From IMG/VR virus record IMGVR_UViG_3300027917_000033, positions 23,843 to 87,842 of that record: a DNA stretch of 64,000 nucleotides, one strand, 5' to 3'. The stretch is from a virus. Positions 1,762-49,785 of this stretch are shown piece by piece. The stretch's first letter is position 1, and each line of letters opens with the position of its first letter. The position numbers and the translations under genes were made by a program. The notes below the pieces were generated by a model, which made no database searches, was not told where the DNA came from, and worked only from the letters and a program-made list of their open reading frames with translations.

Positions 1762-2247
1762 CTAAGTCGATTCTCTCTGCTCTTGGCGCTTAAATCCAGC
1801 TAATGACCGGAGATGGTCAGATTTCATCTTGATTGCGTCAACTATGTTGTATAACTTACCCATAGTTCTATTCGCAAGGATAAGTTGAGTCTCTATCCTT
1901 AATAGCTCATCATCCTTTTCGACCAATTCCCTAAATACCTTTTCCGGGATTTTTGGCCAATCTTCTTTTCTCGATTCCTGTATGATCATTTCATAGGCTA
2001 TAGCTCTTCTCCTTTTTGCTTTTCTATCTAAACTTGCTACTGTCGCTTTCTGTTCGCTATATACAGCAGCCCAAAATGCAAACTCTTGCGGAGTTGTAGT
2101 TAGGTCTTCCTCCAATGTTTCGTAGTCAATCTTTAAATCGGGTCTGAAGTCTCTTTCTACGATATTCTTTTCACCCATATCGACTCTGATTCTGATAACC
2201 CGCTTTATTAAATCTTCACTCAGATTCTCTGAGAACCAGTCCTTCAT
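1762..2247 (-). CDS. UvsY-like recombination mediator
   Basis: 161 residues, nearly all helical and charged. The spacing of segments follows T4 UvsY: a central run of Lys/Arg-rich helix (KRRRAIAYEMI), then a segment resembling the UvsY D-T-S-L-Q stretch (LRIETQLILANRTMGKLYNIVDAIKMK, given here in parts: LRIETQL at about 117) and a closing LRSLAGF. UvsY loads the recombinase onto gp32-coated DNA; here the partners would be the gp32-like protein next door and the RecA at 5.3-6.4 kb. The call rests on pattern similarity and on position between SSB and polymerase, so it is moderate. It overlaps the next gene by 4 bases. Confidence 0.5.
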   Translation of the reverse strand: MKDWFSENLSEDLIKRVIRIRVDMGEKNIVERDFRPDLKIDYETLEEDLTTTPQEFAFWAAVYSEQKATVASLDRKAKRRRAIAYEMIIQESRKEDWPKIPEKVFRELVEKDDELLRIETQLILANRTMGKLYNIVDAIKMKSDHLRSLAGFKRQEQREST

Positions 2248-3353
2248 CTGAAATCCCTATAAAATTTCCATTCTTTCCAAACCTTCCCGATATATACTCT
2301 CAACGGGAATCTTGGGAACTCATCTAGCGGCTTTATCATGATATCAGATGCGGCTTTTATGATATGTGGAACCAATCCGGGCCTGCTAGCAAATACGACC
2401 GAATCATGTGTTTCAGTCACCAGATACTTCTTTAATTCAGGTGCCATGCGTATCAAGCTTGATTGCATAGCATGCGCAACCGTTCCCTGCAGCACAGCAT
2501 TAAATACACTTTTTTCGTCTCTGTCACCAATTTTAAATCGTCTACCTAGCAAAGAACTCAGGTAGCCATCCTTTGCCAACTTTTGTGCCTGTTTGATCAT
2601 CCACTCTCTTAATTCAGGAAATACTTCCAATATTGGTGACTCCAAATCTATCGAGTATATTGTTCTAAGATATAGTCTTTTGCATTCATCACGAGGTATG
2701 TCTAATGCTTCGCTCAGCATCGTGTGTGGGTCTGACTTCTGAAAGCTCTCATTTAGGTATTCGTCATTAGAAAACGCTGCGGCAGCTCTAATGTCAGCTG
2801 CTATCCAATCAAGACAGACTAATACGTCTTCGTCATTGCCGGTGTTTATTGGCGTACCATTCGTTATGCCTTGCATGTTATATCTAGTACATCTAGACCT
2901 ACCTGTAAACGTATCCAATTCATAGCTAGGGTAGACACGTTGCTCATCTAGGTACAATTCTCTGCTTTCCATAACCTTATAGACTTCAGCGCTTCTGCCA
3001 AGCAAGTTCCGCCATTTGGTCGGTTGTGGGTTGGCGCTGATGATTGTTTGGAATAACATCGCAAGTTGCTTGTCGCTTGCTCCGTTCGGTACGTGAATAT
3101 TTAACTGGTTAAGCTTGCTGGTATCGAGTATGTTGAAAGCGTAGAGATGTGCTTTAGGGTTGTTTAGTAGAACCTGTGTTTTGCTTGATGTAATTATTTC
3201 TGATATCTGACTGATAGTTTTGTTAACTTCATACAAAGTTTTCCCGGTCCCCTTAGCATACAATGGGTATGTGCTATTGTGCTCGCCATCGTTTATAAAT
3301 GTAACTAGCGGCTTTGGTGGCGTGTTGCTATCGAATGCCGTAAAGATGATCAT
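2244..3353 (-). CDS. short family A DNA polymerase-like protein
   Basis: 369 residues, far shorter than Pol I or T7 polymerase; only the palm and fingers region is recognisable. Seen in order: TGRSRCTRYNMQGI (150-163, the T-G-R and N-x-Q block), motif A around CLDWIAADIRA (Asp182), SDPHTMLSEAL, an O-helix-like RDECKRLYLRTIY (221-233) and motif C THDSVVF. Two catalytic aspartates are in place, but motif C reads H-D-S where Pol I has H-D-E. There is no 3'-5' exonuclease domain. A second polymerase (split DnaE) lies at 11.6-16.5 kb, so this may act in repair or gap filling, or on an unusual template. ATGA-type overlaps join it to both neighbours. Confidence 0.7.
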   Translation of the reverse strand: MIIFTAFDSNTPPKPLVTFINDGEHNSTYPLYAKGTGKTLYEVNKTISQISEIITSSKTQVLLNNPKAHLYAFNILDTSKLNQLNIHVPNGASDKQLAMLFQTIISANPQPTKWRNLLGRSAEVYKVMESRELYLDEQRVYPSYELDTFTGRSRCTRYNMQGITNGTPINTGNDEDVLVCLDWIAADIRAAAAFSNDEYLNESFQKSDPHTMLSEALDIPRDECKRLYLRTIYSIDLESPILEVFPELREWMIKQAQKLAKDGYLSSLLGRRFKIGDRDEKSVFNAVLQGTVAHAMQSSLIRMAPELKKYLVTETHDSVVFASRPGLVPHIIKAASDIMIKPLDEFPRFPLRVYIGKVWKEWKFYRDFR

Positions 3354-8759: not shown

Positions 8760-9161
8760 ATGGAAGATAAGATAGAAATCATCGAACTTGGATTGGACGA
8801 AGATCTTAAGAAGGATATTGAGGATTCGGCTAAATTGTCAGACGACATACAAATTAAATTGAAAAACCAAGTACAAGGTATGACCAAACAAATGATAAAT
8901 AAGAAAGCCCAAGAAAAGAAAAAATGGGAAGGAAAGTTAGATATTATATATGAAATTCTGTTAGAATCATACGAACGTGATCCACAGAAGCATGTTCCCA
9001 AAACTACCATAATAGAAGCCATATCGTGTAGTGACAAAGAACTATCAAGTACGATCTTGCGGTTTAAGCGTTATTTAAGAACCACCAAGGAAGACAAGTG
9101 GACATTGATGCGTAAAAAGGTTAGGGGCATAACTAGTTACGCACTTGCTCCCTTTGCCTAA
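8760..9161 (+). CDS. hypothetical helical protein
   Basis: 133 residues, highly charged and helical. The C-terminal part (YERDPQKHVPKTTIIEAI ... LRFKRYLRTT) reads like a winged helix-turn-helix, but no family was recognised. It starts 11 bases from the divergent gene at 8748, and its last 29 bases overlap the end of the uracil-DNA glycosylase gene. Confidence 0.55.
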   Translation: MEDKIEIIELGLDEDLKKDIEDSAKLSDDIQIKLKNQVQGMTKQMINKKAQEKKKWEGKLDIIYEILLESYERDPQKHVPKTTIIEAISCSDKELSSTILRFKRYLRTTKEDKWTLMRKKVRGITSYALAPFA

Positions 9162-9858
9162 GCCCAACAATCAATCTGCACAGCAAGCTAACCTGTCTAC
9201 TAAAAGCCTCTTTTCTAACTTTGTCGGCTAAATTTCTAGGAGATGGATGATATATTGCAAATATTTTCTTGCCAGCCAATTCTGAGTGAGTTAGCTTCCC
9301 AAGGGCTTTTGCGTATATTGCGTCCGGGCAGAAATGGTTGAATGAAATAGCTCCAAGCGTAATCAAAAAATCTGGGTTTAATATGGCAAGTTCCATTTGC
9401 AAGAACGGGTGGCATTTCTGGATACTATCATACTCTGGCTTAGCATTATTTTCTGTATAGCATTTGCAAATGTTGGTTATGTAAAAATCCTTCCGTTCTA
9501 AACCATTCTTTTCTATTTCTCTGTTGAAATTTATGCCAGCTTGCCCCACGAATGGTTCATCCTGATGGCACTCATTGACTCCTGGATTTTGCCCGACTAT
9601 CATATACTTACTAGGTGTCATAGTGCTAAATACATGCTGGTCATACCCGTAGTGTTTTCTGCCGAGATGGCACATGATGCAATCTTTACAAGTGTCTCTT
9701 AGCGATCTCAGCATTGTTATTCTGTCGTCGTTCACTGGTTTCCAATCGAAGTGTCTGATCTCCCTAACAATTCTATCTTCTTCACTGTTGTACACTAAAT
9801 AATTTCCGAATCGAAGTGGCAATATCATAAAAATAATCCCATCTAGCATTACTACCAA
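9133..9858 (-). CDS. uracil-DNA glycosylase, family 4/5-like
   Basis: 241 residues at most. Diagnostic blocks: VGQNPG followed by EPFVGQAG (water-activating and uracil-binding loops), NICKC, LGAIS and the closing HPSPRN. Cysteines in TCKDCIMC, NICKC and KCHPF fit the four ligands of the Fe-S cluster of family 4 enzymes. It removes uracil from DNA and starts base excision repair. The real start is uncertain: the longest frame overlaps the flavoprotein gene by 77 bases, and a start at about 9714 would remove the overlap but trim the N-terminus. Confidence 0.85.
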   Translation of the reverse strand: MVVMLDGIIFMILPLRFGNYLVYNSEEDRIVREIRHFDWKPVNDDRITMLRSLRDTCKDCIMCHLGRKHYGYDQHVFSTMTPSKYMIVGQNPGVNECHQDEPFVGQAGINFNREIEKNGLERKDFYITNICKCYTENNAKPEYDSIQKCHPFLQMELAILNPDFLITLGAISFNHFCPDAIYAKALGKLTHSELAGKKIFAIYHPSPRNLADKVRKEAFSRQVSLLCRLIVGLRQREQVRN

Positions 9859-11198: not shown

Positions 11199-11632
11199 CC
11201 CCCTTTCTTATCGCGGTTTTGTCTAGATTCAAGAAGGTGCTTCTTCCATTTTTCGCCACATTCGAAACACATATTGAAGTCCATATGCTTGGGAATTACT
11301 TCAGATGGTCCCTCTTCTTTTTTGTTTTTATCTACTACCACCTTGGTTACAATTAATTGGTAGTACGTGAAAGACGCTCCCTTGCTGTACTTCGGGCACG
11401 AATCACATTTTATCTGTAAAGGGGTGATAGGGCCAAGGTTTTCAATACACTTATTCTTGATGTTAGCAAAGCATGATTCACATATATCACATGAATCAAT
11501 CATTTTGGGCGGCGATGAAAACCCACCGTTAACTGAAATTTCTACTCTGTCGAACGAATAATACGTGAAATCATTTCTATATGCCGACGTACAGATATCA
11601 CACTCTATACCATCCTTTGATTTAAGAAGCAT
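11189..11632 (-). CDS. cysteine-rich protein with repeated zinc sites
   Basis: 147 residues with CDIC, CDICESC, CDSC and CFEC. The two halves look like internal repeats: FTYYSFDRVEISVNGG and FTYYQLIVTKVVVDKN follow a Cys pair in each. Probably two zinc-stabilised domains arisen by duplication. Directly follows the polymerase C-half with an 11-base overlap, so it may be a polymerase accessory. Confidence 0.6.
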   Translation of the reverse strand: MLLKSKDGIECDICTSAYRNDFTYYSFDRVEISVNGGFSSPPKMIDSCDICESCFANIKNKCIENLGPITPLQIKCDSCPKYSKGASFTYYQLIVTKVVVDKNKKEEGPSEVIPKHMDFNMCFECGEKWKKHLLESRQNRDKKGGWS

Positions 11633-13985
11633 CTTTCATCTCCAGTGGAAGGATAATCGACCCAGGCCTTATGTTGAAACTAGAGTATTCTTCCTTCCAT
11701 GCAACCCTGATTCGTATTCCGACTCCTTCCTGAAACAAAGATGGGTCATTAATTGACAATTCGCTATTCCAGACCATGATTTTGGCCAGTTCTACACCAT
11801 CAGTCACCATCATTTGCATGAATTCACCACTAGCGCCTCTGCGCATTTCTAAACTTTCTATTACAGCTTCCAGTATTCCATGTGTTTTGGCGTCTGTTAC
11901 AGTGTGGCCTTCGCAATTGTAGGCATCAAGCGGCGAGTTCCAATAATACCCAAGATACTGTTTCTCAAACGCGAGTTTTTCGGTAAACTTGTAATCGTCA
12001 TATAGTTCTTCTATCTTAGTTAATGTTGGGTTTGGTTTTGGTTTCCAATTTTCTATGCTCTTAGGCACCTTTTTTCTGTTTGGGTATTGCACAAGATACT
12101 CAGCTTTTCTACGCTGTCGTTCCTTTATTATATCAGATTCTTGCCATGCAAGTTTTTCGTTGACTTCTTTCTTGATTTCCTTGTGTTCTTGGCCGGAAGT
12201 AGTATATTTGTAAAGGTACCAATGCCACAAAGCTCGCCGGTTTGGGCATATTTCGTTAAATGCGCCTAGCTTTATTAATCTCTCAAAAACTGTTTTATTC
12301 TTACCCGCTTGGACTATGAACTCATCTATTGAATCTGTGCTTCTTTCGCCAGCTATTTTCTGGGCAGCTTTGATACCTATACCTTTTATGCTTTCAAGCC
12401 CAGGCGTAACCATGTCTCCGTCAACAGAGAAAGTCGGCCCAAGCTTGCGAAAATTAATAGCACCAAACTTAACACCTTCGGCTCTGGCTATACCCATATA
12501 TCTAACTAATTTGTCGTGTTTACAATTAGACATCACCGCAGCCCACCATTCTGCTGGGTAATGTGATTTGAGCCACAAACACCTGTACGAAATAATTACG
12601 TAGGCTATCGCATGGCTAAGGTTGAAACAATACCTAGCAAATGATTCGATTTTGCTCCACCATTCAATTGCCTTTGCGCCCCCTATTGTCTTGGTTGCGC
12701 CATCTATTACTTTGTCTTTAACCTTGGCAAGCTTGTCGGCCCACTTTTTGGCAACGGCTTTGCGTGCTGCTTCAGCTTCTGGGATTGAGAATCCACATAT
12801 GTCGGTGAAGAATCTACTTAATTGTTCTTGGAACACTATAATATTGTATGTGTCTTTTAATATCGCTGTAATCCTTGGGTCCTCGTCGTCCTTCCATGAT
12901 TGGCTGCTTGAATCTCTGCGTTTGATATATTCATCAACTAGAGGCAATGGCCCTGGTCTGCCAAGAGACGTATAAATCACCAGATCATTAAAGTTTTTAA
13001 CACCGCCCTTTTGCAGAATGCTCTTGGCGAGGTCTGTCTCAAACTGAAAAATTGTTTCTACTCGTTTCTGGTCAGCCATTTTGATGGCCAGTGGATCACT
13101 AAACCTTATCGGTTCTCGTTTCCCATCGGCAAATACTTCCCATCCAGCTCGATCTTCTTCCGGGTCCATATTATCCCAATCTATGACCACCCCCCTATTG
13201 CCTTCAATTAATTTCTTGCAGTTCCAAATGTGTAACAAATTGGTTAGGCCAAGTATATCGAATTTGACGAATCCAAATTTTGATAGCTGCGTGCTCCTGC
13301 CTTCTGTCCATGAAGAGGTCCATTGGCCGCCGCTTATTGTCAATGGAATATGGTCTTTGACAGGAACACTAGAGATAATCAGCCCACCAGCATGCCTACC
13401 CTGCGTTTTGATAAGTTTCACAAGTTTGTACGCCAGTGAGACTACGTTCTGGTTTCTGTCGGCATAATCTTTAAATGCCGGATAAGCATCCGCTGCCTCA
13501 TCATAATCCATGTCATCAAACTCATCCGGGAGTGTCTTTGTAAGCTTTTGTATTTCGTCTATGTCTATCCCAAGAGTCCTGCATGTGTCGATTAATGCTA
13601 ACTTTGGCTTGTACGTCTGCCATAAGCCGACACTGCACACCTTATCGACTCCGTATGTATCGGCAGCATACTTCTTAATGTGGTCTCTAGCGATTGGGAG
13701 GAAATCAGAATCAATATCTGGATAATCAGGATGATATTGAATGTTTGGTTTTATGCCAGCTTCTACCGGATCGATATCGGTCAGGCCAAGTAGATGCAGC
13801 AAAACAAGACCGTTTGGATTGTCGTCGAGTTTCTCATTCTTTTCATATAATTCAACCCAGTAATCGGCCATTCCTTGCAATTCTATCTGTTCAAACTCGT
13901 ATGATAGGCGTTTAGAATATGGCTTTGTGTCCGGTTTCTTAGTTAATGCAACGAGTGCAATCTTTTTGAGCTCATTCCAAGTCAT
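11622..13985 (-). CDS. DNA polymerase III alpha (DnaE-type), C-terminal half of a split enzyme
   Basis: 787 residues. The catalytic PDIDSDF (89-95) carries two of the three palm aspartates; the third is in FVKFDILGL. Finger residues (GRHAGGLIIS), the tandem helix-hairpin-helix (IKGIGIKAAQKIAG) and an OB-like C-terminal region follow. The PHP domain and the Gly-Ser loop are missing and are encoded separately at 15100-16476. Before PDIDSDF the protein has its own version of the stretch that ends the N-half (LVLLHLLGLTDIDPVEAG), so the two halves overlap by about 30 residues of homologous sequence. No intein motifs are seen at the ends, so the parts probably assemble non-covalently. Confidence 0.9.
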   Translation of the reverse strand: MTWNELKKIALVALTKKPDTKPYSKRLSYEFEQIELQGMADYWVELYEKNEKLDDNPNGLVLLHLLGLTDIDPVEAGIKPNIQYHPDYPDIDSDFLPIARDHIKKYAADTYGVDKVCSVGLWQTYKPKLALIDTCRTLGIDIDEIQKLTKTLPDEFDDMDYDEAADAYPAFKDYADRNQNVVSLAYKLVKLIKTQGRHAGGLIISSVPVKDHIPLTISGGQWTSSWTEGRSTQLSKFGFVKFDILGLTNLLHIWNCKKLIEGNRGVVIDWDNMDPEEDRAGWEVFADGKREPIRFSDPLAIKMADQKRVETIFQFETDLAKSILQKGGVKNFNDLVIYTSLGRPGPLPLVDEYIKRRDSSSQSWKDDEDPRITAILKDTYNIIVFQEQLSRFFTDICGFSIPEAEAARKAVAKKWADKLAKVKDKVIDGATKTIGGAKAIEWWSKIESFARYCFNLSHAIAYVIISYRCLWLKSHYPAEWWAAVMSNCKHDKLVRYMGIARAEGVKFGAINFRKLGPTFSVDGDMVTPGLESIKGIGIKAAQKIAGERSTDSIDEFIVQAGKNKTVFERLIKLGAFNEICPNRRALWHWYLYKYTTSGQEHKEIKKEVNEKLAWQESDIIKERQRRKAEYLVQYPNRKKVPKSIENWKPKPNPTLTKIEELYDDYKFTEKLAFEKQYLGYYWNSPLDAYNCEGHTVTDAKTHGILEAVIESLEMRRGASGEFMQMMVTDGVELAKIMVWNSELSINDPSLFQEGVGIRIRVAWKEEYSSFNIRPGSIILPLEMKDAS

Positions 13986-14356
13986 TCTTCCCTACATAAT
14001 TGTCTAGCCTCGTCGCTTTTATCAAATACCACCTGTATATCTTTATCAATAATCAGATCTCTTATTTCTTCAACTAGCTCTCTGTTGGATTTCGGCGTAA
14101 GGTCCCATGTAATTTCCTTTCCGTCTGTTTTATATTTCGTCATATTTGCTACATATTGGTTCGGCGTAGTTACTGTGACGTTCTCAATCTTGACACCCAT
14201 TGCGGCAAATTTCATAGCTAATAGTTCAACACTATTAACTGTTGCGTTATCTCCGCCATCATACACAAATGTCTTCTTTTTGTCCTTGTCTTTAACGATC
14301 ACACAGAACTTAGTACCGTATTTGCCACTGACGATACCAGCCGTTTCAATCTTCAT
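13982..14356 (-). CDS. RNase HI-like fold protein, active site probably incompl­ete
   Basis: 124 residues. FVYDGGDNATVNSVELLAMKFA recalls the RNase H block with the catalytic Glu in NSVELLAM, and the C-terminus (VVFDKSDEARQLCREE) the last E-x-x-D-x-x-A helix. The usual D-S-x-Y in the middle reads TPNQYVAN, lacking the Asp, so cleavage activity is doubtful. It may be a nucleic-acid-binding remnant. It sits between the two polymerase halves with 4-base overlaps on both sides. Confidence 0.45.
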   Translation of the reverse strand: MKIETAGIVSGKYGTKFCVIVKDKDKKKTFVYDGGDNATVNSVELLAMKFAAMGVKIENVTVTTPNQYVANMTKYKTDGKEITWDLTPKSNRELVEEIRDLIIDKDIQVVFDKSDEARQLCREE

Positions 14357-14769
14357 GAAAGCATCTCCAAGTGTGGTATCCCAACAGACTTTGCTAATCT
14401 TTTGGCCGTTTTTAATGATGATTTGTGCCAGTCCAGAATGGCATCAACGTCGCCTTTGTCTACATCTGGCATAGTTTTCCCAATTGTCGATATTTCTTCG
14501 GGCCTAAGATTCAATATTTCGCAGAATCCAAACACTAGTGCGCGTAACGTGTGTATGATCATGGCACCAACGTCTTCGACAATTCTTGACTCGTCTCCAT
14601 TTTCATATGCTGCTGCAATCAATGATTCAACAACATCCGGCCATTTAAACATTGAATGTACAGCTATGAATTGGGTTCTACCAGCGCCTACAATCGATAT
14701 ATAGGCTGCTTCTAATTGCTTGGTTTTATTGATTAACTCTTTTAACTGATTTAATTTCGTTGGCGTCAT
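14353..14769 (-). CDS. hypothetical protein between the DNA polymerase halves
   Basis: 138 residues, helical, with the segment TLRALVFGFCEILNLRPEEI. Not recognised. Overlaps the RNase H-like gene by 4 bases and the next gene by 44. Its place inside the split dnaE locus suggests that it was inserted there or came with the splitting event. Confidence 0.55.
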   Translation of the reverse strand: MTPTKLNQLKELINKTKQLEAAYISIVGAGRTQFIAVHSMFKWPDVVESLIAAAYENGDESRIVEDVGAMIIHTLRALVFGFCEILNLRPEEISTIGKTMPDVDKGDVDAILDWHKSSLKTAKRLAKSVGIPHLEMLS

Positions 14770-15103
14770 ATATGTCTAACTTTAATTCTCCTTCGGCTAT
14801 TCTTATGCCCGATTCAGTACCTTGTATCAGTAGGTGATTGTAAGGTAAGATATTCAAAGCTATTCTCTTATTCGATGGTATCCGCCACACCCTACCTATT
14901 TTGTTATCATAAATATTTACAATTGTGGATATCATTTCCTTTAGTTTCGATATGTTGTCCAACCTGGCAAAAAACCTCAATTCGTTTGTGAAGTTTTTGT
15001 GCGTTGTATTCAAATAGCAATCATCACTGTTTCCAGTCGGATCTATCATTATACTAATAGCGCAGAACCCTCTCGACCTTAGTAACTCTATTGCATCGAT
15101 CAT
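14726..15103 (-). CDS. hypothetical protein between the DNA polymerase halves
   Basis: 125 residues, alpha/beta. The order helix, strands, helix (IDAIELLRSRGF ... LRFFARLDNISKLKEMISTI) loosely recalls the small paralogous family of the tRNA region, but the D-P-x-x-F signature is absent, so I do not place it there. Overlaps the N-half of the polymerase by 4 bases. Confidence 0.55.
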   Translation of the reverse strand: MIDAIELLRSRGFCAISIMIDPTGNSDDCYLNTTHKNFTNELRFFARLDNISKLKEMISTIVNIYDNKIGRVWRIPSNKRIALNILPYNHLLIQGTESGIRIAEGELKLDIYDANEIKSVKRVNQ

Positions 15104-16476
15104 TCTGCTTTTACATTCAACAGATAACCACCCCTGCTTGGTGACAAAAACCTATTAAACGACAGCTTCCATTTTAGTGGATTGAGGCTATGAATTCCTA
15201 GCAGATAACATAGCAGTGAGCCGCCCGCTGATCCTCGCGCTGGGCCAACGTCCCATCCATTATCTCTTGAATATTGTACTAAATCCATCATTATCAGGAA
15301 GTATGATGCAAAACCTTTTGATATTATTCTCTTAAGCTCCTTTTCTACCTGTTGTTTGTGAGTTACCATTTCGCCGTCCATATGGTATTTAGTCTCGTCG
15401 TTGAATAAATTGTGCTTTTTTAGTCTGTCAAATGCAAGCAATGTCAGTTTTCTGTCGGCATCTGGTATAGACGGCAATTTTGGCGATAGGTCCGGATCGA
15501 ATCCGTCGCACTTATCTGCTGCGATAATTGTATTGTCACATATCTCTTCGAATTTGTCGATTGTTACACCATTGCTGTAGCCTTCATCATAAAATGTGGT
15601 CCTTAAGTCCGCTCTCGTCTTAAAGAACTGTTCATCCGAATTGACTATAAATAATTCCGGGTTATCCATCGTGGTGTTCTGGTCTATTGCCATCATGCAT
15701 TTTTGAACTTCGAAGTCCTCTCTCTTGATGTAGTGACTATCGTTGGTCAACACACCCTTTATCCTGAATTTATCAGACCAGCCAGCACACATCGCGAACG
15801 CCTCTATAGATCCTTCTAGGTCTTTGCCTGGCATTTGCATTTCAATGTACAAGTCATCTCCGAATATTTCATACATTTTGTGCAACCAATCTTTGGCGAT
15901 GTCCAAATACCTCTTGGCCGCCGATCTGTTTTTTTCTTTCATGGCCAAGTATGCTAACCTGATTTCGTGGCATAGCGGGCCGTTTAGGCAGCCAGTTAAT
16001 ACAAGCAAGCCTTCCCTATGCTTGTCCAGTCTATCGAGCCAAACCCTTGGTTTGTAATAGAATCCTATATCCCACGCAGTTGATGTCATATGAATTAGGT
16101 TACGATACCCAACTTTGTTTTTGGCCAGTACTGTCAAATGTCTTTGCCTCCTCAAGCGTTCATATCTCTCAGGGTCAACCAGCTTCAAGGAGGCCCATTT
16201 TTGTCCACTAGCCTGGAATTCTTTTAATTCATTGTGATAATCATTGTAGTACACTTCGCAACCTGCGATGAATTTCACCTTATGCTTTTTGGCGGCAAAA
16301 TATGCGTCTGGAAATGATGCTAGACTACCATGGTCTGTGATTGCTACGGCTGGCATTCCAAGTTCAACGCATCTTTCCATATAATCGTTTGGTGATGCTA
16401 TTCCGTCCAATGGTGAAAATATTGAATGGGTGTGTAGATGGACGAAATTAGTTGGACCTGGATATTTATCTGCCAT
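15100..16476 (-). CDS. DNA polymerase III alpha (DnaE-type), N-terminal half with PHP domain
   Basis: 458 residues from ATG 16476. The PHP domain is intact by eye: HLHTHSIFS, ITDHGS, AGCEVYY, LTGCLNGPL and NDSHY, the metal ligands that give some DnaE proteins proofreading activity. Near the end lies the Gly-Ser loop VGPARGSAGGS, which in DnaE binds the incoming nucleotide region, then LSFNRFLSPSRGG and a short unrelated end. In one-piece DnaE the sequence P-D-F-D-V-D-F follows at this point; here it is in the other gene, 1.1 kb downstream. Both halves are needed for a complete active site. Confidence 0.9.
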   Translation of the reverse strand: MADKYPGPTNFVHLHTHSIFSPLDGIASPNDYMERCVELGMPAVAITDHGSLASFPDAYFAAKKHKVKFIAGCEVYYNDYHNELKEFQASGQKWASLKLVDPERYERLRRQRHLTVLAKNKVGYRNLIHMTSTAWDIGFYYKPRVWLDRLDKHREGLLVLTGCLNGPLCHEIRLAYLAMKEKNRSAAKRYLDIAKDWLHKMYEIFGDDLYIEMQMPGKDLEGSIEAFAMCAGWSDKFRIKGVLTNDSHYIKREDFEVQKCMMAIDQNTTMDNPELFIVNSDEQFFKTRADLRTTFYDEGYSNGVTIDKFEEICDNTIIAADKCDGFDPDLSPKLPSIPDADRKLTLLAFDRLKKHNLFNDETKYHMDGEMVTHKQQVEKELKRIISKGFASYFLIMMDLVQYSRDNGWDVGPARGSAGGSLLCYLLGIHSLNPLKWKLSFNRFLSPSRGGYLLNVKAE

Positions 16477-16768
16477 CTGGCTCGACGTCACTGACTCTTC
16501 TTAGTCTTTTCCTAGCGGCTAGCAATTTATTTTTTATCTCGTGGAGCAAGTCGTAACGCCCATCAGAATCGTCACTTTCACACAATTCAATGACTTCGCC
16601 AATCATTTCAATTGCATTCTGGACGAGGACGACAACTGCCTGTTTCTTTTTGAACACCTCAGCAGTCTTTAATTTTGGATCGCCAATTATTTTTAGGAAT
16701 ATCTGGCGTTTTGCAAATTTTGCTTCAGTAGCAAGCTCTTCCATGTCCATATTCACCACATCCTCCAT
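16466..16768 (-). CDS. hypothetical helical protein
   Basis: 100 residues, strongly helical and charged (FKKKQAVVVLVQNAIEMIGEVIEL), Arg/Lys-rich near the end. Overlaps the start of the polymerase N-half. First gene of the minus-strand polymerase operon after the hairpin at 16796-16830. Not recognised. Confidence 0.55.
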   Translation of the reverse strand: MEDVVNMDMEELATEAKFAKRQIFLKIIGDPKLKTAEVFKKKQAVVVLVQNAIEMIGEVIELCESDDSDGRYDLLHEIKNKLLAARKRLRRVSDVEPDGR

Positions 16769-17179: not shown

Positions 17180-18934
17180 TTAAGCCGCGACATATGACTC
17201 CACGAATCTAACCGAGCAGGTCCAATCCCATGTCTCTGAATTGTTTCCAGTTATCCTAACCCTTATGCTATCGCCACTAGTATCAAGTGCGGCTTGTAAC
17301 GTAGAGCCAGTTCCAGCCGATTGATTATTTCCAAGCGGCCCGCCAGCAGGAACCAAGACAGCACCGTCAAGAGCTGCATCCAAATACGCCAGTTGATCAT
17401 CATGCCCAAAAGACGCAGCGTCATCTGATGTTCTCTTTTTGGCTGCAATTAGGATCAATAGTGAATATGCCTTCCACGGTTCAAGAGGCATATCCAATAT
17501 TGTCTGTGTTGTATTGGTGGTAGTTTGCAAGTACTTTATGATTTCGCAACTTTGCGAATGGCCAAGACCAGAAGTCCTGTTCGAGCCGAAAGCTTTCTGG
17601 TCAGCTCTGTAAGCATCGGCGTAATATCCCTGGGCGAAGCCACGTGCGGCATATGAACGGCAGTTTTCGCCTTGGCAGAACGACCATTCTGCGTTGTTAA
17701 CTACTGTATTGCTGGAGCCCTGCAGAAATGAGTTGTTCTCATCGGCAGTATTACCATATCCCTGCAACAAATTATAGTCGTTGTTACTCGCTTGTACTGT
17801 ATTAGTATCGCCTTGTATGAAATTGAAATTGTTTCCAGCGCCAGAACAAGTATTATCTGTCCCTTGCATGAAGTTGCCAGAATTGCCAGTGCCAGTGATG
17901 TTGTTACTTAAGCCCTGCAGGAAACAATAGTCGGCCCCGGCAATGCCATTACTCTTACCTTGTATGAAATTGTAATTGTAATACCCATACTCACCGAACA
18001 CACCACCAGTGTAATTGCCATACCCTTGTGTCATACACCCATAACTTTTTCTAGATACAGCATTGCCCTCGCCCTGTGCAAAACTATTCTTGCCACGACC
18101 TGCACCATATGGTCCAACAGCGGCGGCTATGTTGTTTGTGTCACCTTGTGCGAAAGAAGACGCAGAATTGCCGTAGATGGTATTGTTATAACCCTGTGCC
18201 ATACTATTCGGCGATGATGCGTATATTATGTTCGTGTCGCCCTGTGCAAAGCAGTTGTCTGAATATACATCGTTGTCGCTGCCGATTGCAGAGCTATTCG
18301 ATACTGCTGTCGGATAAGCTCCAACTGTATTGCCAGTGCCTTGGGCTATGCCTTGAGAAGCATATACAGAAATCGAGGAGCCCTGCACAAGCATGTCATA
18401 GGTATTAGCACCATAATATCCGACTACCAGGGTTGCGCCTTGAGCGAACGCACGCTGCGTGTAGTTGACGACGACGTTGCCTTGTACCATGGCTATCTGA
18501 CCGTAGCTAAGAGCGCCTTTACCTTGCGCAAACACGTAAGCCGCACCAACTGACCCGGCCCCATAGCCCTGTCCCATCACACAATTTGAATTAGCTATAA
18601 TACCACGCCCCTGCGCTAACGAATAGTTGCCGTTTGCAGACGATGACCAACCTTGGGCAAACGAGCCAACGCCGCTCGCGGATGCAGAGTTGCCTTGCGC
18701 GAACGAATGGTTACCACCGGCAGCCGAAGAGTTTCCCTGAGCAAGCGCGTTGTCACCAGCTGCCGTGGGGGCCACTGCACCCTTACCAATGCCAGCATTC
18801 GTGCCAGCGCCATCAGTGAAGAAGCCTGTGCCATCTGGTGCTGGGATTTCGATAGCACCAATCATCTCCGTGATCATTTCCCATTCACGCTGCATCCCAG
18901 CCCATTTGTCAGGGAATGTGTCTAATACGCTCAT
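17180..18934 (-). CDS. tail fibre or adhesin-like protein with about 25 A-Q-G repeats
   Basis: 584 residues. Residues ~50-440 are a run of degenerate repeats of 12-18 residues, each with F-A-Q-G or a variant (LAQG, FLQG, MVQG), alternating with Ser/Asn/Gly-rich turns. This resembles the head repeats of YadA-type trimeric adhesins and Hep_Hag motifs, which fold as a left-handed beta-roll. The C-terminal 130 residues (KYLQTTTNTTQTILDMPLEPW onward, here split) form a separate beta-rich domain, likely for trimerisation or binding. Probable host-recognition or capsid-decoration fibre. A promoter-like box lies 25 bases before the ATG. Confidence 0.7.
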   Translation of the reverse strand: MSVLDTFPDKWAGMQREWEMITEMIGAIEIPAPDGTGFFTDGAGTNAGIGKGAVAPTAAGDNALAQGNSSAAGGNHSFAQGNSASASGVGSFAQGWSSSANGNYSLAQGRGIIANSNCVMGQGYGAGSVGAAYVFAQGKGALSYGQIAMVQGNVVVNYTQRAFAQGATLVVGYYGANTYDMLVQGSSISVYASQGIAQGTGNTVGAYPTAVSNSSAIGSDNDVYSDNCFAQGDTNIIYASSPNSMAQGYNNTIYGNSASSFAQGDTNNIAAAVGPYGAGRGKNSFAQGEGNAVSRKSYGCMTQGYGNYTGGVFGEYGYYNYNFIQGKSNGIAGADYCFLQGLSNNITGTGNSGNFMQGTDNTCSGAGNNFNFIQGDTNTVQASNNDYNLLQGYGNTADENNSFLQGSSNTVVNNAEWSFCQGENCRSYAARGFAQGYYADAYRADQKAFGSNRTSGLGHSQSCEIIKYLQTTTNTTQTILDMPLEPWKAYSLLILIAAKKRTSDDAASFGHDDQLAYLDAALDGAVLVPAGGPLGNNQSAGTGSTLQAALDTSGDSIRVRITGNNSETWDWTCSVRFVESYVAA

Positions 18935-43995: not shown

Positions 43996-44019
43996 TGTCG
44001 TATTCCTTAACAGGTTTAG

Positions 44020-44091
44020 TACCCCCGGCAGGATTCGAACCTGCGTACGACCGATTAGGAATCGGTGGCCAATCCATTTGGCGACGGGGGC
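44020..44091 (-). tRNA. tRNA-Arg (anticodon CCU)
   Basis: Cloverleaf closes with stem ACCGA/TCGGT and loop TTCCTAA; reads AGG. Acceptor GCCCCCG/CGGGGGT. No encoded CCA. The 3' end of the coding sequence upstream (44055-44555) runs into it. Confidence 0.9.
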
Positions 44092-44555
44092 TCGTCACCG
44101 GCTTTGTCTTTACTCATACCGTTTGGGTGTAATCCTTGAACTTTCTTTACTCTTGGGCCTATTCTAAAACATTTGTTACATCTTATCACATCATCCAATC
44201 CGGCTGGTACGGTTTCCATATCTCCACCACACGAGCATTTGAAACTAAATATTCTTGTGGGCCTTCCAACACCTTTCTCCCATTCGTCAAATCTGACCTC
44301 TCTACTCCTAACCCATCCCTCATATCGGTCAATTGCTACTGTTGCGCGAGCTTTTCTCTCTTTAAGACAATCATCACATATGAATATGTGTAATGATAAA
44401 CTTTCATTTAGTGGGTCCCAAACCGATGAGGCCCAATTACCAGTTGCTCTAAAATGAACTGCACTTCCTATTTCTATGGATTTACGTCCGTCACAGTGTT
44501 CGTGTGACTCGGCTATGCAGTTTTTACCGCAGATGAGACATTCGTCGCTGTTCAT
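44055..44555 (-). CDS. zinc-binding protein ending inside tRNA-Arg
   Basis: 166 residues. Cys clusters CLICGKNC, CDDC, CSCGG and CNKC make one or two ribbons; the middle is basic and aromatic. The last ~12 residues are encoded by the 5' half of the tRNA-Arg gene, so the stop codon was probably supplied by the tRNA. Function unknown. Confidence 0.6.
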   Translation of the reverse strand: MNSDECLICGKNCIAESHEHCDGRKSIEIGSAVHFRATGNWASSVWDPLNESLSLHIFICDDCLKERKARATVAIDRYEGWVRSREVRFDEWEKGVGRPTRIFSFKCSCGGDMETVPAGLDDVIRCNKCFRIGPRVKKVQGLHPNGMSKDKAGDEPPSPNGLATDS

Positions 44556-45007
44556 TGATCCTCTGTAATCTCACTAATACCCCCGGAAGGAGTCAAACCT
44601 TCGTTTTCAGCTTCGGAAGCTGGTGCTTTATTCGTTAAGCTACGGGGGCTTTTGACAATATGAGTGTGGCCGATGCTACATTCCATCGAATGGCTTGCCA
44701 CCAATAAGCCATGCCAATGATTGTCGAACATGATCGGATTCACTAATATGGGTGAATCTAGCAGATTCATTAATTCTTGGATTGATGCTGGTGCGCACAA
44801 TTCTAAAGTTATCGACTCATGCATATTTCCTGATATTGTAACTTTAGTGCCGTCAAATCTTAACCGGCGCGGAGCAACAATAGAATATTTTCCATTATCA
44901 TCACTGACCCCCATATATGGCTTGTTGTATACGATGGTATTGTCTCGCATCACGACGCCTAAACCAGCATTTTTAAGATGCTTGAAAAGTATGTCTATTG
45001 CTTCCAT
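44552..45007 (-). CDS. DPxxF-family protein with a tRNA inside its 3' end
   Basis: 151 residues. Body: strands and helices with the signature LCAPASIQELMNLL. The final 30 residues read through the whole tRNA-Arg (CCG) gene. Either the tRNA inserted near the end of the gene and the frame stayed open, or the true ending was lost. Start six bases after tRNA-Ile. Overlaps the next gene by 4 bases. Confidence 0.6.
   Translation of the reverse strand: MEAIDILFKHLKNAGLGVVMRDNTIVYNKPYMGVSDDNGKYSIVAPRRLRFDGTKVTISGNMHESITLELCAPASIQELMNLLDSPILVNPIMFDNHWHGLLVASHSMECSIGHTHIVKSPRSLTNKAPASEAENEGLTPSGGISEITEDQ
44578..44649 (-). tRNA. tRNA-Arg (anticodon CCG)
   Basis: Loop TTCCGAA in the stem CAGC/GCTG; reads CGG. 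Acceptor GCCCCCG/CGGGGGT as in the other tRNA-Arg. One anticodon-stem mismatch. It lies entirely inside the reading frame 44552-45007. Confidence 0.85.
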
Positions 45008-45013
45008 TACTCA

Positions 45014-45085
45014 TGAGGGCGGTGGGAATCGAACCCACGACAGGCAACTTATAAGGCTGCTCCTCTGCCACTGAGGTACGCCCCC
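45014..45085 (-). tRNA. tRNA-Ile (anticodon UAU)
   Basis: Stem GCAGC/GTTGC, loop CTTATAA; reads AUA. Seven-pair acceptor with one G-U. Followed six bases later by the start of 44552-45007. Confidence 0.9.
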
Positions 45086-45131
45086 GGTTGAGTAAGGACG
45101 AATCCCCCCCGACCCGCCCTTACTCGTGCCA

Positions 45132-45320
45132 CTACAAGTGGCGAATTCTGTACTGTGTTTTCCTGTACTTCTTCCAGTTTTTGTTGTTGATGAGATCTGA
45201 TCGGCAGATGTCATCCCATGCATCTGGTAAACGCCTTGGGCTTCTCCTAGCTCTACCGCACCATTTGATGTATTTTCTTTTCTCTTGGGTGGTTTTTGGG
45301 TGTCTCAACCATTTACCCAT
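45132..45320 (-). CDS. small basic protein
   Basis: 62 residues from ATG 45320 (SD AAGGAGG). Arg/Lys- and Trp-rich: GKWLRHPKTTQEKRKYIKW and later KNWKKYRKTQYRIRHL. Probably nucleic-acid binding. Not recognised. Confidence 0.6.
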   Translation of the reverse strand: MGKWLRHPKTTQEKRKYIKWCGRARRSPRRLPDAWDDICRSDLINNKNWKKYRKTQYRIRHL

Positions 45321-45395
45321 TTTGGCCTCCTTAATGAAACACATTAAGTGAAGCCTTCTTTCCAATTTGACATGATCTGGTCCTCAAAGGGTTAA

Positions 45396-45466
45396 TAGGC
45401 GCGAGGGGAATCGAACCCCTACAAACAGCGTGTAAAACTGCCACCCTACCATTAGGTTACGCGCCT
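45396..45466 (-). tRNA. tRNA-Val (anticodon UAC)
   Basis: Acceptor AGGCGCG/CGCGCCT; stem GCAGT/GCTGT with two wobble pairs and loop TTTACAC; reads GUA and other GUN. Confidence 0.85.
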
Positions 45467-45471
45467 GTTAA

Positions 45472-45557
45472 TAGCGGGGACGCGAATCGAACGCGCACTC
45501 CCTTTCAGGAACCGGCTTATGAGACCGGTGTGCCTAACCAATATGCACCTCCCCGCT
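45472..45557 (-). tRNA. tRNA-Met-like (anticodon CAU) with a 15-base variable region
   Basis: 86 bases. Acceptor AGCGGGG/CCCCGCT, anticodon stem CCGGT/GCCGG with loop CTCATAA. The variable region is TTCCTGAAAGGGAGT, able to form a short arm, which is class II style and unusual for a CAU tRNA. It may be Met or, if modified, Ile. Confidence 0.75.
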
Positions 45558-45559
45558 GA

Positions 45560-45645
45560 TGCCCAGAGCGGGATTCGAACCCGCACGCGGTTCAGCCGCA
45601 CTAGCTCCTCGGGCTAGCCTGTCTACCAAATTCCAGCACCTGGGC
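45560..45645 (-). tRNA. tRNA-Leu (anticodon GAG)
   Basis: Class II tRNA. Stem CTAGC/GCTAG, loop CCGAGGA; reads CUC/CUU. Base 33 is C instead of the almost universal U. Confidence 0.8.
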
Positions 45646-45654
45646 GCATCCGGG

Positions 45655-45975
45655 CTATTGATTTATTTGTACTTTCTTCTTGGTTACGTCAATGATTAGT
45701 TCGATTACGGACGGTACCAAATTTTTGAGGACGTAATCTTCAACCCATGTTTCAATTGGTTCTGGGACCCAAGGTATATTAGGATTTACTTCTTTGTAGG
45801 CTTGTCTTATGACATCAACCACGAACTGCTTTTTCTGTGGGCCATCTAGTTCAGTTATCGTTTCGGCGATTTCTGCGGCGGTCTTAACAGCATTGATAAT
45901 ATCATCAAATTCGAATCCGTTGCCAAAACATTCAACAACCTTCTTGACAGCAACAACAGTCTGTTCACCGTCCAT
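45655..45975 (-). CDS. hypothetical helical protein
   Basis: 106 residues, helical (IINAVKTAAEIAETITEL ... VPSVIELIIDVTKKK). The end is amphipathic. Overlaps the next gene by 11 bases. Not recognised. Confidence 0.55.
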   Translation of the reverse strand: MDGEQTVVAVKKVVECFGNGFEFDDIINAVKTAAEIAETITELDGPQKKQFVVDVIRQAYKEVNPNIPWVPEPIETWVEDYVLKNLVPSVIELIIDVTKKKVQINQ

Positions 45976-46186
45976 GTTCTTCTCCTTTAATTTGTGAACG
46001 TCGCATCTGAATTTGGGCCGCTACGTTTATACCGTCTGCGTGGATCATTTCCCACCATGAAGCCATCACTTTTATCGCTTCATCGTAAGAGAAATGGCTG
46101 ATATGAACAATATTATCTGAATCCAATTTCTCTACTAGCACAAATCCCTCACCACAATCTGTCTTGATACTGTTGTTTATTTTCAT
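45965..46186 (-). CDS. hypothetical small protein
   Basis: 73 residues, alpha/beta (GFVLVEKLDSDNIVHISHFS). Not recognised. Starts 7 bases after the membrane-protein gene. Confidence 0.55.
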   Translation of the reverse strand: MKINNSIKTDCGEGFVLVEKLDSDNIVHISHFSYDEAIKVMASWWEMIHADGINVAAQIQMRRSQIKGEEHGR

Positions 46187-46193
46187 TGTTGTC

Positions 46194-46571
46194 TCACAGA
46201 ATGCTGAATAGGATCCACATCAACAAGAGGTGCATCCCGTTGTCTACACCGATATAAATGCATGGCACGAATGGTCCTTCAAGTGAATGCCCGTATACCT
46301 GCATCCATTTGTGCCCAAGTGACCATCGATCTATTGGGAAATGTGTTACAAACGCTATCAAAAATGCGACTATAGATGATGCCGCTGGTTCTAGTTTTGA
46401 TTGCCAGTTGCTGGCAATCATCACCACAGTAACCATGCATGCATATATTGTACAGTGAATCAAGCATGCTTTGAGACCAAGATACCCAGGCTTGTGTTTG
46501 CGGTTGGCCATCCAGTCATTCTGAAAGATATAATCGCCAAGCAGATGGCCAATTAGCAATTCAATGTTCAT
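46194..46571 (-). CDS. DUF3307-like membrane protein
   Basis: 125 residues. GHLLGDYIFQNDWMANRKHK is the start pattern of the DUF3307 family (H-x-x-G-D ... Q ... K), followed by three or four membrane helices (CTIYACMVTVVMIAS, IVAFLIAFVTHF, MHLLLMWILFSIL). Biological role of the family is not established. Overlaps the next gene by 11 bases. Confidence 0.65.
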   Translation of the reverse strand: MNIELLIGHLLGDYIFQNDWMANRKHKPGYLGLKACLIHCTIYACMVTVVMIASNWQSKLEPAASSIVAFLIAFVTHFPIDRWSLGHKWMQVYGHSLEGPFVPCIYIGVDNGMHLLLMWILFSIL

Positions 46572-46809
46572 CGTTCAGATATTTGTTCCAGCATTCAAGT
46601 ATCACTATGCCAAGGGCCTTTTTGGTAGTTATCCATAAGATTGAATCTTTTTCTGACCCATCTGGGTACATTTCTTGCAATGCCGACAATGTCGTTTGGA
46701 ACACCAACAAGTATTCTTTAGCTTGAGCCCAAGCTTGATCAAGATTATGAATGCCTTGGCCTTGCATATACTCTTCTAGTTTTCTTTTGTCTTCGTCTGA
46801 TAATTCCAT
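46561..46809 (-). CDS. hypothetical helical protein
   Basis: 82 residues, acidic, helical. Its ATG is preceded by a short in-frame-independent 11-codon frame (46813-46848) that begins directly after the CCA of tRNA-Leu (UAG). Not recognised. Confidence 0.5.
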
Positions 46810-46851
46810 TGGTTAAATACCTCGTGGTGCTCTTTGCAATACGTCCATTGG

Positions 46852-46934
46852 TGCCCGAAGCGGGATTCGAACCCGCACGCCCAAAGGGGCACAAGATCCT
46901 AAATCTTGCGTGTCTGCCATTCCACCATTCGGGC
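46852..46934 (-). tRNA. tRNA-Leu (anticodon UAG)
   Basis: Class II. Stem CAAGA/TCTTG, loop TTTAGGA; reads CUA/CUG. CCA is encoded, and ATG follows it directly (11-codon frame). Confidence 0.9.
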
Positions 46935-46941
46935 AAGCTCC

Positions 46942-47001
46942 CCTCGGCCCTCGCAATGAGGGTTTGAATGGAAGGCCTGTCGCACGGAGGCGGGGCCGAG
47001 G
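46942..47001. other. structured spacer between two Leu-type tRNAs
   Basis: CCTCGGCCC (46942-46950) pairs with GGGCCGAGG (46993-47001) and encloses two small hairpins, CCCTC-GCAAT-GAGGG and GCCT/AGGC. An 18-base segment (46975-46992) is repeated at 47183-47200. Could be a processing element or a small RNA. Confidence 0.4.
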
Positions 47002-47008
47002 AGATTGG

Positions 47009-47091
47009 TGCCGGTGGGGAGATTCGAATTCCCACGCCCTCGGGGAGCACCTACGTAGCGTAGCCTGTCTACCAAGTTCCAGCACACCGGC
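47009..47091 (-). pseudogene. degenerate tRNA-Leu-type gene with a 3-base anticodon loop
   Basis: Acceptor GCCGGTG/CACCGGC, D-arm nearly identical to tRNA-Leu (GAG), variable arm and T-arm present, CCA encoded. The anticodon stem CTACG/CGTAG is perfect but closes a loop of only three bases, CTA. A four-base deletion explains this best, and no normal anticodon can be displayed. Confidence 0.65.
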
Positions 47092-47182
47092 ATTATTCTT
47101 TCCAGTATTTTTCGACAAGTTCATCTAATTCGTTCTGCGGCACTCCGCTATGTCTGCTTTCTGTAATTCACGGCTTCTGCTC

Positions 47183-47200
47183 GCCTGTCGCACGGAGGCG
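47183..47200. repeat. second copy of an 18-base repeat
   Basis: Identical to 46975-46992 (GCCTGTCGCACGGAGGCG). Contains CGCCT/AGGCG around GTCGCACGG, so each copy can form a hairpin. Confidence 0.6.
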
Positions 47201-47215
47201 ATCCTAGAAGGCTCT

Positions 47216-47572
47216 TCATCTTTGGTTGCATTTCCTAAGGATCTCTTCGTCGAGTTCATCTGGGTCATCTATTTCTTTGTCTGAACGGGGATAGTAAATC
47301 CCTCGTTTGTACAATCGATCCTGAACTAATTGTTTGAATGCCTCAAATAAGTAATTTGATGGGTCGAAATCTGGGTTAGCCAGAATATCATGTGCTATTT
47401 TATCGAAGTCGAATTCCTCAGCGATTCCTGTTGGGCCGACTGGCCCTGTTATTCCTGTTACTCCTACTGGACCAGTAGGTCCTGTCAAACCAGTTGGCCC
47501 AACAGGTCCCGAATCACCTGTGAGCCCTCTCACACCTTTAATCAAATCGAATCTAATCTTTTTTACTTTCAT
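47216..47572 (-). CDS. collagen-like protein with LLxNPxFD module
   Basis: 118 residues. A collagen-like G-x-y run with many G-P-T (about 14-50), then a helical module with [17 protein letters not shown]. The same module ends the next two genes. Likely a trimeric decoration or fibre-tip protein. Not otherwise recognised. Confidence 0.6.
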
Positions 47573-47579
47573 TGAATAC

Positions 47580-47939: not shown

Positions 47940-47961
47940 CAGAAAATCCTCAAGAGTCTGG

Positions 47962-48044
47962 TACCGGAAGCGGGAGTCGAACCCACACGGGCTAGTGCCC
48001 ACTTGATTTTGAATCAAGCATGTCTACCATTCCATCATTCCGGT
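47962..48044 (-). tRNA. tRNA-Leu (anticodon CAA)
   Basis: Class II. Stem CTTGA/TCAAG, loop TTCAAAA; reads UUG. CCA encoded. The stop codon of 48024-48311 lies in its 5' end. Confidence 0.9.
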
Positions 48045-48806: not shown

Positions 48807-48811
48807 TGTTA

Positions 48812-49782: not shown

Positions 49783-49785
49783 TCC

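What the first reader, a model, noticed from the sequence alone, without database searches (positions are those of the whole stretch)
11622..16476. DNA polymerase III alpha split before the catalytic PDxDxDF motif, with three genes inserted and a duplicated junction
The N-half (PHP domain through the Gly-Ser loop) and C-half (palm aspartates onward) lie 1.1 kb apart with three small genes between. The junction segment is in both parts: SLLCYLLGIHSLNPLKW at the end of the first and LVLLHLLGLTDIDPVEAG in the second. A simple insertion would not duplicate it; perhaps two dnaE copies each decayed from opposite ends. No intein splice residues are seen.
Basis: partly seen in the sequence, partly recalled or inferred. 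Interest (0 to 1): 0.78.

Follow-up and report, generated by a model that had tools for sequence, protein, structure and literature searches.

The report
Two-piece DNA polymerase of large phages
This phage and a family of large relatives make their bacterial-type replication enzyme as two separate proteins whose shared active site is divided between them, and one half carries an altered second copy of part of the other, which points to a polymerase that works only when two chains come together.

Summary
An N-chain (15100-16491, minus; PHP plus the Gly-Ser motif) and a C-chain (11622-13985, minus; all three catalytic Asp, fingers, HhH, OB fold) are separate genes in one overlapping operon. C-chain residues 1-88 are a true second copy of the palm start, minus the Gly-Ser loop (hhalign 97.3%; best of 100 shuffles 14.3%). 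It is not decay. Twenty-three further viral contigs, up to 408 kb, belong to the same clade. None of the 24 has an intact gene of this lineage. Catalytic residues are invariant, and the copy is under purifying selection (dN/dS about 0.06 in the one pair where it can be measured). A sister clade holds split members with the same copy and also intact members, so a re-fusion is likely. No intein is left at the window's junction, but another phage DnaE lineage has a split intein at exactly this break. Best reading: a two-chain DnaE whose active site is completed in trans; the copy may serve folding, docking or regulation (inferred). A split of Pol III alpha between the NTP-binding and Mg-binding parts was reported for other jumbo phages (Iyer 2021), but without PHP and beside a B-family polymerase. 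Hence: new variant of a known kind.

The parts
15100..16491 (-). N-chain of split DnaE, 463 aa: PHP domain plus start of the palm with the Gly-Ser motif; ends SPSRGGYLLNVKAE
   Evidence: AF2 model residues 14-455 match PolIII alpha 2hpi/3e0d, Z 35, rmsd 7.6, 388-391 aligned
15835..16440 (-). PHP domain (residues 18-219)
   Evidence: D29, H54, E79, H118, C168, D251, H253 identical in 19 of 19 aligned N-chains, H18 and H20 in 15 of 19 (2 rows truncated by contig start, 2 differ in this alignment)
15217..15246 (-). Gly-Ser motif GPARGSAGGS (residues 416-425)
   Evidence: R419, G420, S421, G424 invariant in 19 of 19 N-chains; absent from the C-chain copy
15103..15144 (-). N-chain tail (about residues 450-463), conserved RGGxLLxVxM; disordered in the model (451-463 under pLDDT 50)
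11622..13985 (-). C-chain of split DnaE, 787 aa
   Evidence: AF2 model residues from about 94-101 to 597 match PolIII alpha chains at Z about 22, rmsd 8-9, 457-466 aligned
13722..13985 (-). Second, Gly-Ser-less copy of the palm start (pseudo-palm, residues 1-88)
13704..13721 (-). Catalytic PDIDSD (D90, D92) of the C-chain
   Evidence: D90 and D92 identical in 14 of 14 aligned C-chains; pLDDT under 50 at 83-97 when the C-chain is folded alone
13257..13259 (-). Third catalytic Asp, D243 (FVKFDILGL)
   Evidence: 14 of 14; the stretch just before it, 226-241, has pLDDT under 50
12690..13229 (-). Fingers domain (DNA_pol3_finger)
12228..12434 (-). Helix-hairpin-helix (HHH_6)
11628..11912 (-). C-terminal OB fold (residues 692-786)
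   Evidence: OB-fold chains, Z about 9-10.6, rmsd 2-4
13982..14356 (-). RNase H-like small protein (124 aa), probably inactive: first and third acidic ligands seem lost
   Evidence: PF00075 E=6e-4, below its cut-off, phrog_531 1.4e-4; found upstream of the C-chain in 14 of 19 distinct clade loci; loss of ligands read by eye, ligand positions recalled
14353..14769 (-). Small protein X with 'KWPD' motif, 138 aa
   Evidence: iterated HMM finds it upstream of the C-chain in 14 of 19 distinct clade loci (weak, E 1e-5 to 2e-3, in 4 of these)
14726..15103 (-). Small protein Y, 125 aa, narrow distribution
   Evidence: found in 1 of 21 relatives' loci (L184, 41%)

Best explanation
It is a two-chain C-family (DnaE-type) DNA polymerase. 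The N-chain supplies the PHP nuclease domain and the Gly-Ser loop that contacts the incoming triphosphate (role recalled). The C-chain supplies the three metal-binding Asp, fingers, HhH and OB fold. The two chains are made from one coupled operon and dock so that the polymerase active site forms between them. The C-chain starts with an altered second copy of the palm segment that lacks the Gly-Ser loop. I infer that it keeps the C-chain folded and soluble, or guides docking, until the N-chain's genuine segment completes the palm, and so may act as a switch. Shown: two separate conserved genes, complementary catalytic motifs, selection on the copy, no intact gene of this lineage in the clade. 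Inferred: the complex, its activity, and the role of the copy.
For: Same architecture in 24 contigs of one clade, window included: 0 of 24 have both halves in one ORF; 22 of 24 show the N-chain as a separate gene (21 near the C-chain, one of them, L212, itself in pieces; 1 about 58 kb away: L191); 2 (L182, L193) are cut by contig ends. 18 of 24 have the GS-less copy joined to PDxD in one frame, 5 have it but interrupted, 1 is cut off. Catalytic Asp 14 of 14, Gly-Ser core residues 19 of 19. Copy under selection: dN 0.073, dS 1.16 for L189/L196, against 0.024 and 1.06 for the rest; mean identity 44% against 50% over 66 pairs. Whole contigs: only the split pieces in 19 of 20, up to 408 kb. N and C trees each recover the clade (17 of 17, support 100). 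AF2 folds the C-chain well (pLDDT 83), but the stretches 83-97 (holding D90, D92) and 226-241 (just before D243) fall under 50 without its partner.
Against: No complex was modelled or tested. In the C-chain model the PDB matches start at residue 94-121, so the copy is not seen in the canonical palm position. All 20 contigs also carry a reduced A-family polymerase-like protein, so the split DnaE need not be the main replicase. One of 20 (L188's) has an additional 559-aa DnaE without PHP. A bacterial sliding clamp (PF00712) was found in 0 of 20. Low pLDDT may only reflect a 14-sequence alignment.
Confidence: 0.72

Rival explanations
1. Two functions, not one enzyme: the N-chain is a free PHP nuclease (proofreader) and the C-chain polymerises alone, its altered copy replacing the Gly-Ser segment.
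For: The copy sits in one frame with the catalytic Asp in 18 of 24 contigs and is under selection. In L191 the halves are about 58 kb apart.
Against: The N-chain keeps the polymerase-specific Gly-Ser motif and the following helix (19 of 19), for which a free PHP nuclease has no obvious use; the copy lacks that motif in 15 of 15.
Confidence: 0.15
2. The halves are joined after translation or at RNA level (protein trans-splicing or trans-spliced RNA), giving one DnaE chain.
For: Another phage DnaE lineage (L245, L246, L248, L275, L279) has split-intein halves at exactly this point; Hint matches are weak (PF13403 E 0.028). Five clade members carry block-A-like Hint remnants inside the C-chain gene.
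Against: No intein residues in the window's two ends. A splice would discard the GS-less copy, which is conserved and selected as part of the C-chain.
Confidence: 0.07
3. Dead remnants of a dnaE that the phage no longer needs, replication being done by the A-family-like protein or the host.
For: A reduced A-family-like protein in 20 of 20 contigs.
Against: Long open frames and invariant catalytic residues over a clade 37-68% identical to the window; dN/dS about 0.02 in the body. The A-family-like protein itself seems to lack the fingers helix (read by eye, motifs recalled).
Confidence: 0.04
4. Origin from two full paralogs trimmed at opposite ends, whatever the present function.
For: The segment is present twice.
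Against: In the C tree the intact sister genes (4) group with the split genes of the same clade at 100/100, window clade outside at 99/96, and the copies have one origin, 100/98; this fits one event followed by re-fusion better. Not excluded if gene conversion occurred.
Confidence: 0.2

Closest known systems
Split 'minimal' Pol III alpha of group 2.2 jumbo phages (Iyer et al. 2021, PMC7824862; section 13 read whole, other passages seen)
   Same: Pol III alpha split into an N-terminal NTP-binding and a C-terminal Mg/template-binding protein, expected to reconstitute one enzyme.
   Different: That one is described as minimal (no other Pol III domains), encoded by distant genes and beside a family B polymerase. 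Here PHP, fingers, HhH and OB are kept, the genes are in one operon in the window, family B is absent from 20 of 20 contigs, and the C-chain carries a GS-less copy, which the passages seen do not mention.
Intact phage DnaE with PHP, e.g. uncultured huge phage LR756511 (595 kb) and IMG/VR L285-L287
   Same: Closest relatives of the C-chain; sister clade.
   Different: One ORF of 1179-1195 aa, no second palm segment.
Split relatives of LR756511: L288-L291 (both halves), L025 and L048 (N-chain only)
   Same: N-chain ends at the same point; the C-chains carry the same kind of GS-less copy.
   Different: Different N-chain tails (ARGGRS.., RGGKQMKLRF..); about 30% identity to the window's chains.
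Split-intein ('fractured') dnaE in phages L245, L246, L248, L275, L279; cyanobacterial split DnaE inteins (mention seen in PMC3919608)
   Same: Gene cut at RFLNPHR|PDIDSD, the same place as the window (L245 group).
   Different: They keep split-intein halves and presumably splice in trans; no duplicated segment. The cyanobacterial split is farther downstream (recalled).
Cellulophaga phage phi13:1 / phiST gp038 + gp039
   Same: Two adjacent DnaE genes split at the same point.
   Different: No duplicated segment on the C-chain; the N-chain ends in a Hint-like tail.
Microbacterium phage Aesir gp55 + gp56
   Same: DnaE in two genes.
   Different: Split between PHP and polymerase, upstream of the Gly-Ser motif.

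Membership tests
C-family DNA polymerase, DnaE type | PHP domain with its nine metal ligands | tested here: met
   all nine in the window; seven identical in 19 of 19 N-chains, H18 and H20 in 15 of 19 (2 truncated, 2 differ)
C-family DNA polymerase, DnaE type | Gly-Ser motif | tested here: met
   N-chain residues 416-425
C-family DNA polymerase, DnaE type | Three catalytic Asp | tested here: met
   C-chain D90, D92, D243, 14 of 14
C-family DNA polymerase, DnaE type | Fingers, HhH and OB fold | tested here: met
C-family DNA polymerase, DnaE type | Palm encoded in one chain | tested here: not met
   two genes in all 24 clade contigs as far as they are seen. I therefore call it a two-chain variant of DnaE, not a standard DnaE
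C-family DNA polymerase, DnaE type | Binding to a sliding clamp | not tested
   PF00712 in 0 of 20 contigs; other clamp families not searched
Split minimal Pol III alpha of jumbo phages (Iyer 2021) | Split between NTP-binding and Mg-binding parts | tested here: met
Split minimal Pol III alpha of jumbo phages (Iyer 2021) | Minimal: no PHP or other Pol III domains | tested here: not met
Split minimal Pol III alpha of jumbo phages (Iyer 2021) | Family B polymerase in the same genome | tested here: not met
   PF00136 in 0 of 20 contigs; the contigs may be incomplete
Split minimal Pol III alpha of jumbo phages (Iyer 2021) | Halves encoded by distant genes | tested here: not met
   adjacent operon in the window; distant only in L191
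Split-intein (fractured) dnaE | N-intein with Cys1 and C-intein ending in HN/S,C,T at the break | tested here: not met
   window ends GGYLLNVKAE stop / MTWNELKK; met in L245, L246, L248, L275 and L279 by motif, Hint profiles only at E 0.03-0.06 for L245

The most novel reading that the evidence does not exclude
A replicative-type polymerase whose nucleotidyltransferase signature (Gly-Ser loop, then Asp-x-Asp) is permanently divided between two proteins, with the catalytic chain carrying a purpose-kept decoy of the missing palm segment that must be displaced for activity: an assembly-controlled polymerase. The split arose once through an intein at this site, was re-fused in one phage clade, and in five relatives the first and second catalytic Asp even lie in different reading frames or behind a stop, so that recoding or a third chain is needed.
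Probability: 0.25. Interest if true: 0.88.

Novelty: new variant of a known kind. Interest (0 to 1): 0.74.

Why it matters
Polymerase palms are usually thought of as one folded chain. A conserved natural two-chain DnaE with complementary half-sites gives a ready system to test how an active site is assembled between chains, how inteins can turn one essential gene into two, and whether a split gene can be mended by fusion. It could also give a split, switchable C-family polymerase for laboratory use.

Tried and rejected
Single-protein scans of IMG/VR with either window half found no relatives; alignments were needed. The genome-contig scan found none. Krampusvirus Aesir and Alicyclobacillus MMB025 were looked at as parallels and set aside: other split point, and a gene cut by an annotated endonuclease gene. 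Pbunavirus PB1 and Rhizobium phage RHEph10 turned out intact. Chimeric origin of N and C (different sisters in the quick N tree) was dropped: holding the N-chains together with LR756511, L025 and L048 gave a tree 23.5 log units better, p-AU 0.77. Ten loci with a break inside or after the PHP part (L108 and the like) were not followed. Hint or intein profiles of Pfam gave only weak matches (best E 0.0046, for L212). No clamp PF00712 was found. In the C-chain fold search, the second palm copy (residues 1-88) was not among the aligned ranges, so its fold is untested. Selection could be measured only for the L189/L196 pair; other pairs are identical or saturated at silent sites. For the interrupted C-chains, intron, frameshift and non-ATG restart were all considered and none could be decided.

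Counting notes. The 24 contigs are the window, the 19 loci L179-L197 and the 4 new ones L209-L212; 9 other loci are the same contigs, and 4 weak hits (L198-L201, 24%) were not counted. L184-L186 are identical in the C-chain, and L189 and L197 differ by 2 silent sites, so about 21 distinct sequences. In one search, 160 of the 168 loci then held had N and C in one ORF. Searches covered 20 of the 24 contigs. The '14 of 19 distinct clade loci' for X and for the RNase H-like gene count W, L009, L010, L180-L184, L187-L189, L191, L192, L194, L195 and L209-L212 once each; L196 and L197 (near-copies of L189) and doubles are left out, L182 is cut off.
Full report
WHAT IS IN THE WINDOW. On the minus strand, gene order is N-chain (16491-15100, 463 aa, GTG start), Y (125 aa), X (138 aa), RNase H-like (124 aa), C-chain (13985-11622, 787 aa), then small genes and a UDG. 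Neighbours overlap by 4, 44, 4, 4 and 11 nt, so this is one coupled operon. Pfam gives PHP and DNA_pol3_alpha 20-98 for the N-chain, and DNA_pol3_alpha 10-260, fingers and HHH_6 for the C-chain. Both chains hit the structures of Pol III alpha. The record holding the window is a virus record of 87,842 bases with no other DNA_pol3_alpha match.

THE DUPLICATED SEGMENT. The alignment with intact phage DnaE shows C-chain residues of about 10-88 running parallel to the N-chain's last 80 residues, with the stretch around VGPARGSA missing. Across relatives, 15 of 15 C-chain copies lack RGS, while 32 of 32 true segments have it. Profile alignment of the copies with Gly-Ser segments of 14 other, intact genes: probability 97.3, score 60; 100 shuffles gave at most 14.3 and 21. 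So the N-chain lacks the Asp, the C-chain lacks the Gly-Ser loop, and each keeps the other half of the active site.

IT IS A CONSERVED ARRANGEMENT. Scans with alignments of the halves found 23 further contigs of the same clade, window included 24, among them records of 408, 395, 371, 356, 275 and 232 kb. None has both halves in one ORF (0 of 24). The N-chain is seen as its own gene in 22; in L191 it lies about 58 kb away. In whole-contig searches, 19 of 20 hold only the split pieces; the exception (L188's) has an extra PHP-less 559-aa DnaE. Trees of the N and C parts each give the 17 clade members tested as one group, support 100. D90, D92 and D243 are present in 14 of 14 C-chains; R419, G420, S421 and G424 in 19 of 19 N-chains; seven of the nine PHP ligands in 19 of 19 N-chains and the other two in 15 of 19. 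The copy is less conserved than the catalytic body, but not free: 44% against 50% mean identity over 66 pairs, and dN/dS about 0.06 against 0.02 for the one pair with usable silent sites.

ORIGIN. The closest clade is that of the 595-kb phage LR756511. It contains intact genes (L004/L172, L285, L286, L287) and split genes (L288, L289, L290/L291; L025 and L048 with the N-chain only), and the split ones whose C-chain is held carry a GS-less copy too. The 15 copies tested form one group, 100/98 (only 90 columns, so with caution). In careful trees the intact genes are sister to the split genes of that clade, N 100/100 and C 100/100, with the window's clade next to them in C (99/96) and unresolved in N. 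One duplication-and-split followed by re-fusion in the intact group is the simplest account; two independent splits are not excluded. Two other phage lineages are cut at the same point. L245 and its kin have N- and C-intein halves there (CLNPETLV... and ...THN/SGAPDIDSD). Cellulophaga phi13:1 has two genes with a short tail and no copy. I infer that an intein at this conserved codon started the split; in the window's clade no intein is left at the break.

STRUCTURE. AF2 of the N-chain (19 sequences): pLDDT 86, only 144-146 and the last 13 residues under 50; it matches Pol III alpha over 14-455, Z 35, rmsd 7.6. AF2 of the C-chain (14 sequences): pLDDT 83, with 83-97 (which holds D90 and D92) and 226-241 (just before D243) under 50, and the copy folded as helices at pLDDT about 73-93. 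It matches Pol III alpha from about residue 94-121 on, Z about 22. This fits an active site that forms only with the partner, but shallow alignments could give the same picture. The copy is not shown in the canonical palm position.

HOW IT MOST LIKELY WORKS. The two chains are co-translated from one operon and pair; the N-chain's Gly-Ser segment completes the palm of the C-chain (inferred). The GS-less copy may hold the place of that segment in the free C-chain or guide docking (inferred). The RNase H-like and X proteins, upstream of the C-chain in 14 of 19 distinct clade loci each, could be accessory subunits (speculation). The phages also carry a reduced A-family-like protein in 20 of 20 contigs and neither family B (0 of 20) nor PF00712 clamp (0 of 20), so the division of labour in replication is open.

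PRIOR ART. Iyer et al. 2021 (section 13 read whole; other passages) describe a minimal Pol III alpha split into NTP-binding and Mg-binding proteins in group 2.2 jumbo phages. So the kind is known. PHP, the full C-terminal domains, the operon, the absence of family B and above all the GS-less copy make this a different variant. Library searches listed no paper on this variant; I saw passages of PMC7412058 and PMC3919608 and only listings for the rest. The library lacks most subscription journals.

SIDE FINDING. In five clade members (L180, L182, L183, L209, L211; three branches of the trees for the four that were in them, L182 not being in the trees) the C-chain gene is further cut. The copy's ORF runs into a tail that resembles intein block A (hhalign 58%, 0 of 100 shuffles as high) and stops. 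A later ORF resumes at GIPHxIEY..PDI, meets a stop, and the rest continues from the second Asp after an extra 1, 2 or 6 nt. In L180 the sequence there is GTT TGA C, like the RF2 frameshift site (recalled). I cannot say how, or whether, these are read through.

Noticed in passing
L180 9001-9640, L182 288-1700, L183 4731-5340, L209 11338-11850, L211 11346-12760: C-chain genes cut between the first and second catalytic Asp (PDI / DID) by a stop and an extra 1, 2 or 6 nt, after a Hint-like tail inside the gene; several independent branches. Recoding, a hidden splice or a three-piece enzyme.
   Followed up: partly
L245 1363-6378 (also L246, L248, L275, L279): Apparent natural split intein in phage DnaE exactly at RFLNPHR / SGAPDIDSD, with a gap of about 0.9 kb between the halves.
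   Followed up: partly
L212 8884-19289: N- and C-chain genes with several intein-like insertions, one seemingly split at the Gly-Ser motif itself (GPRG/CVTPDS ... SN/SAGGS).
   Followed up: partly
L184 9001-12585 and L192 8980-12765: C-chains with an in-frame insert of about 400 aa between fingers and HhH; a weak intein match only in L192.
   Followed up: no
window 2244-3353: A-family polymerase-like protein of 369 aa, conserved in 20 of 20 clade contigs; motif A and a changed motif C seem present, the fingers helix missing (by eye).
   Followed up: partly
window 9133-9858: Uracil-DNA glycosylase-like gene in the same operon; the phage PaBG paper (passages seen) describes such a domain fused to its DNA polymerase I.
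   Followed up: no
window 13982-14356: RNase H-like protein that seems to have lost catalytic acids, translated just before the C-chain in many relatives.
   Followed up: partly
L282 1414-3093 (contig of L188): Unsplit PHP-less DnaE of 559 aa in the same contig as a split DnaE.
   Followed up: partly
window 44019-63434: 19 tRNA genes on the minus strand.
   Followed up: no
window 17180-18934: 584-aa protein with many repeats around 'AQG', possibly a fibre or adhesin head.
   Followed up: no
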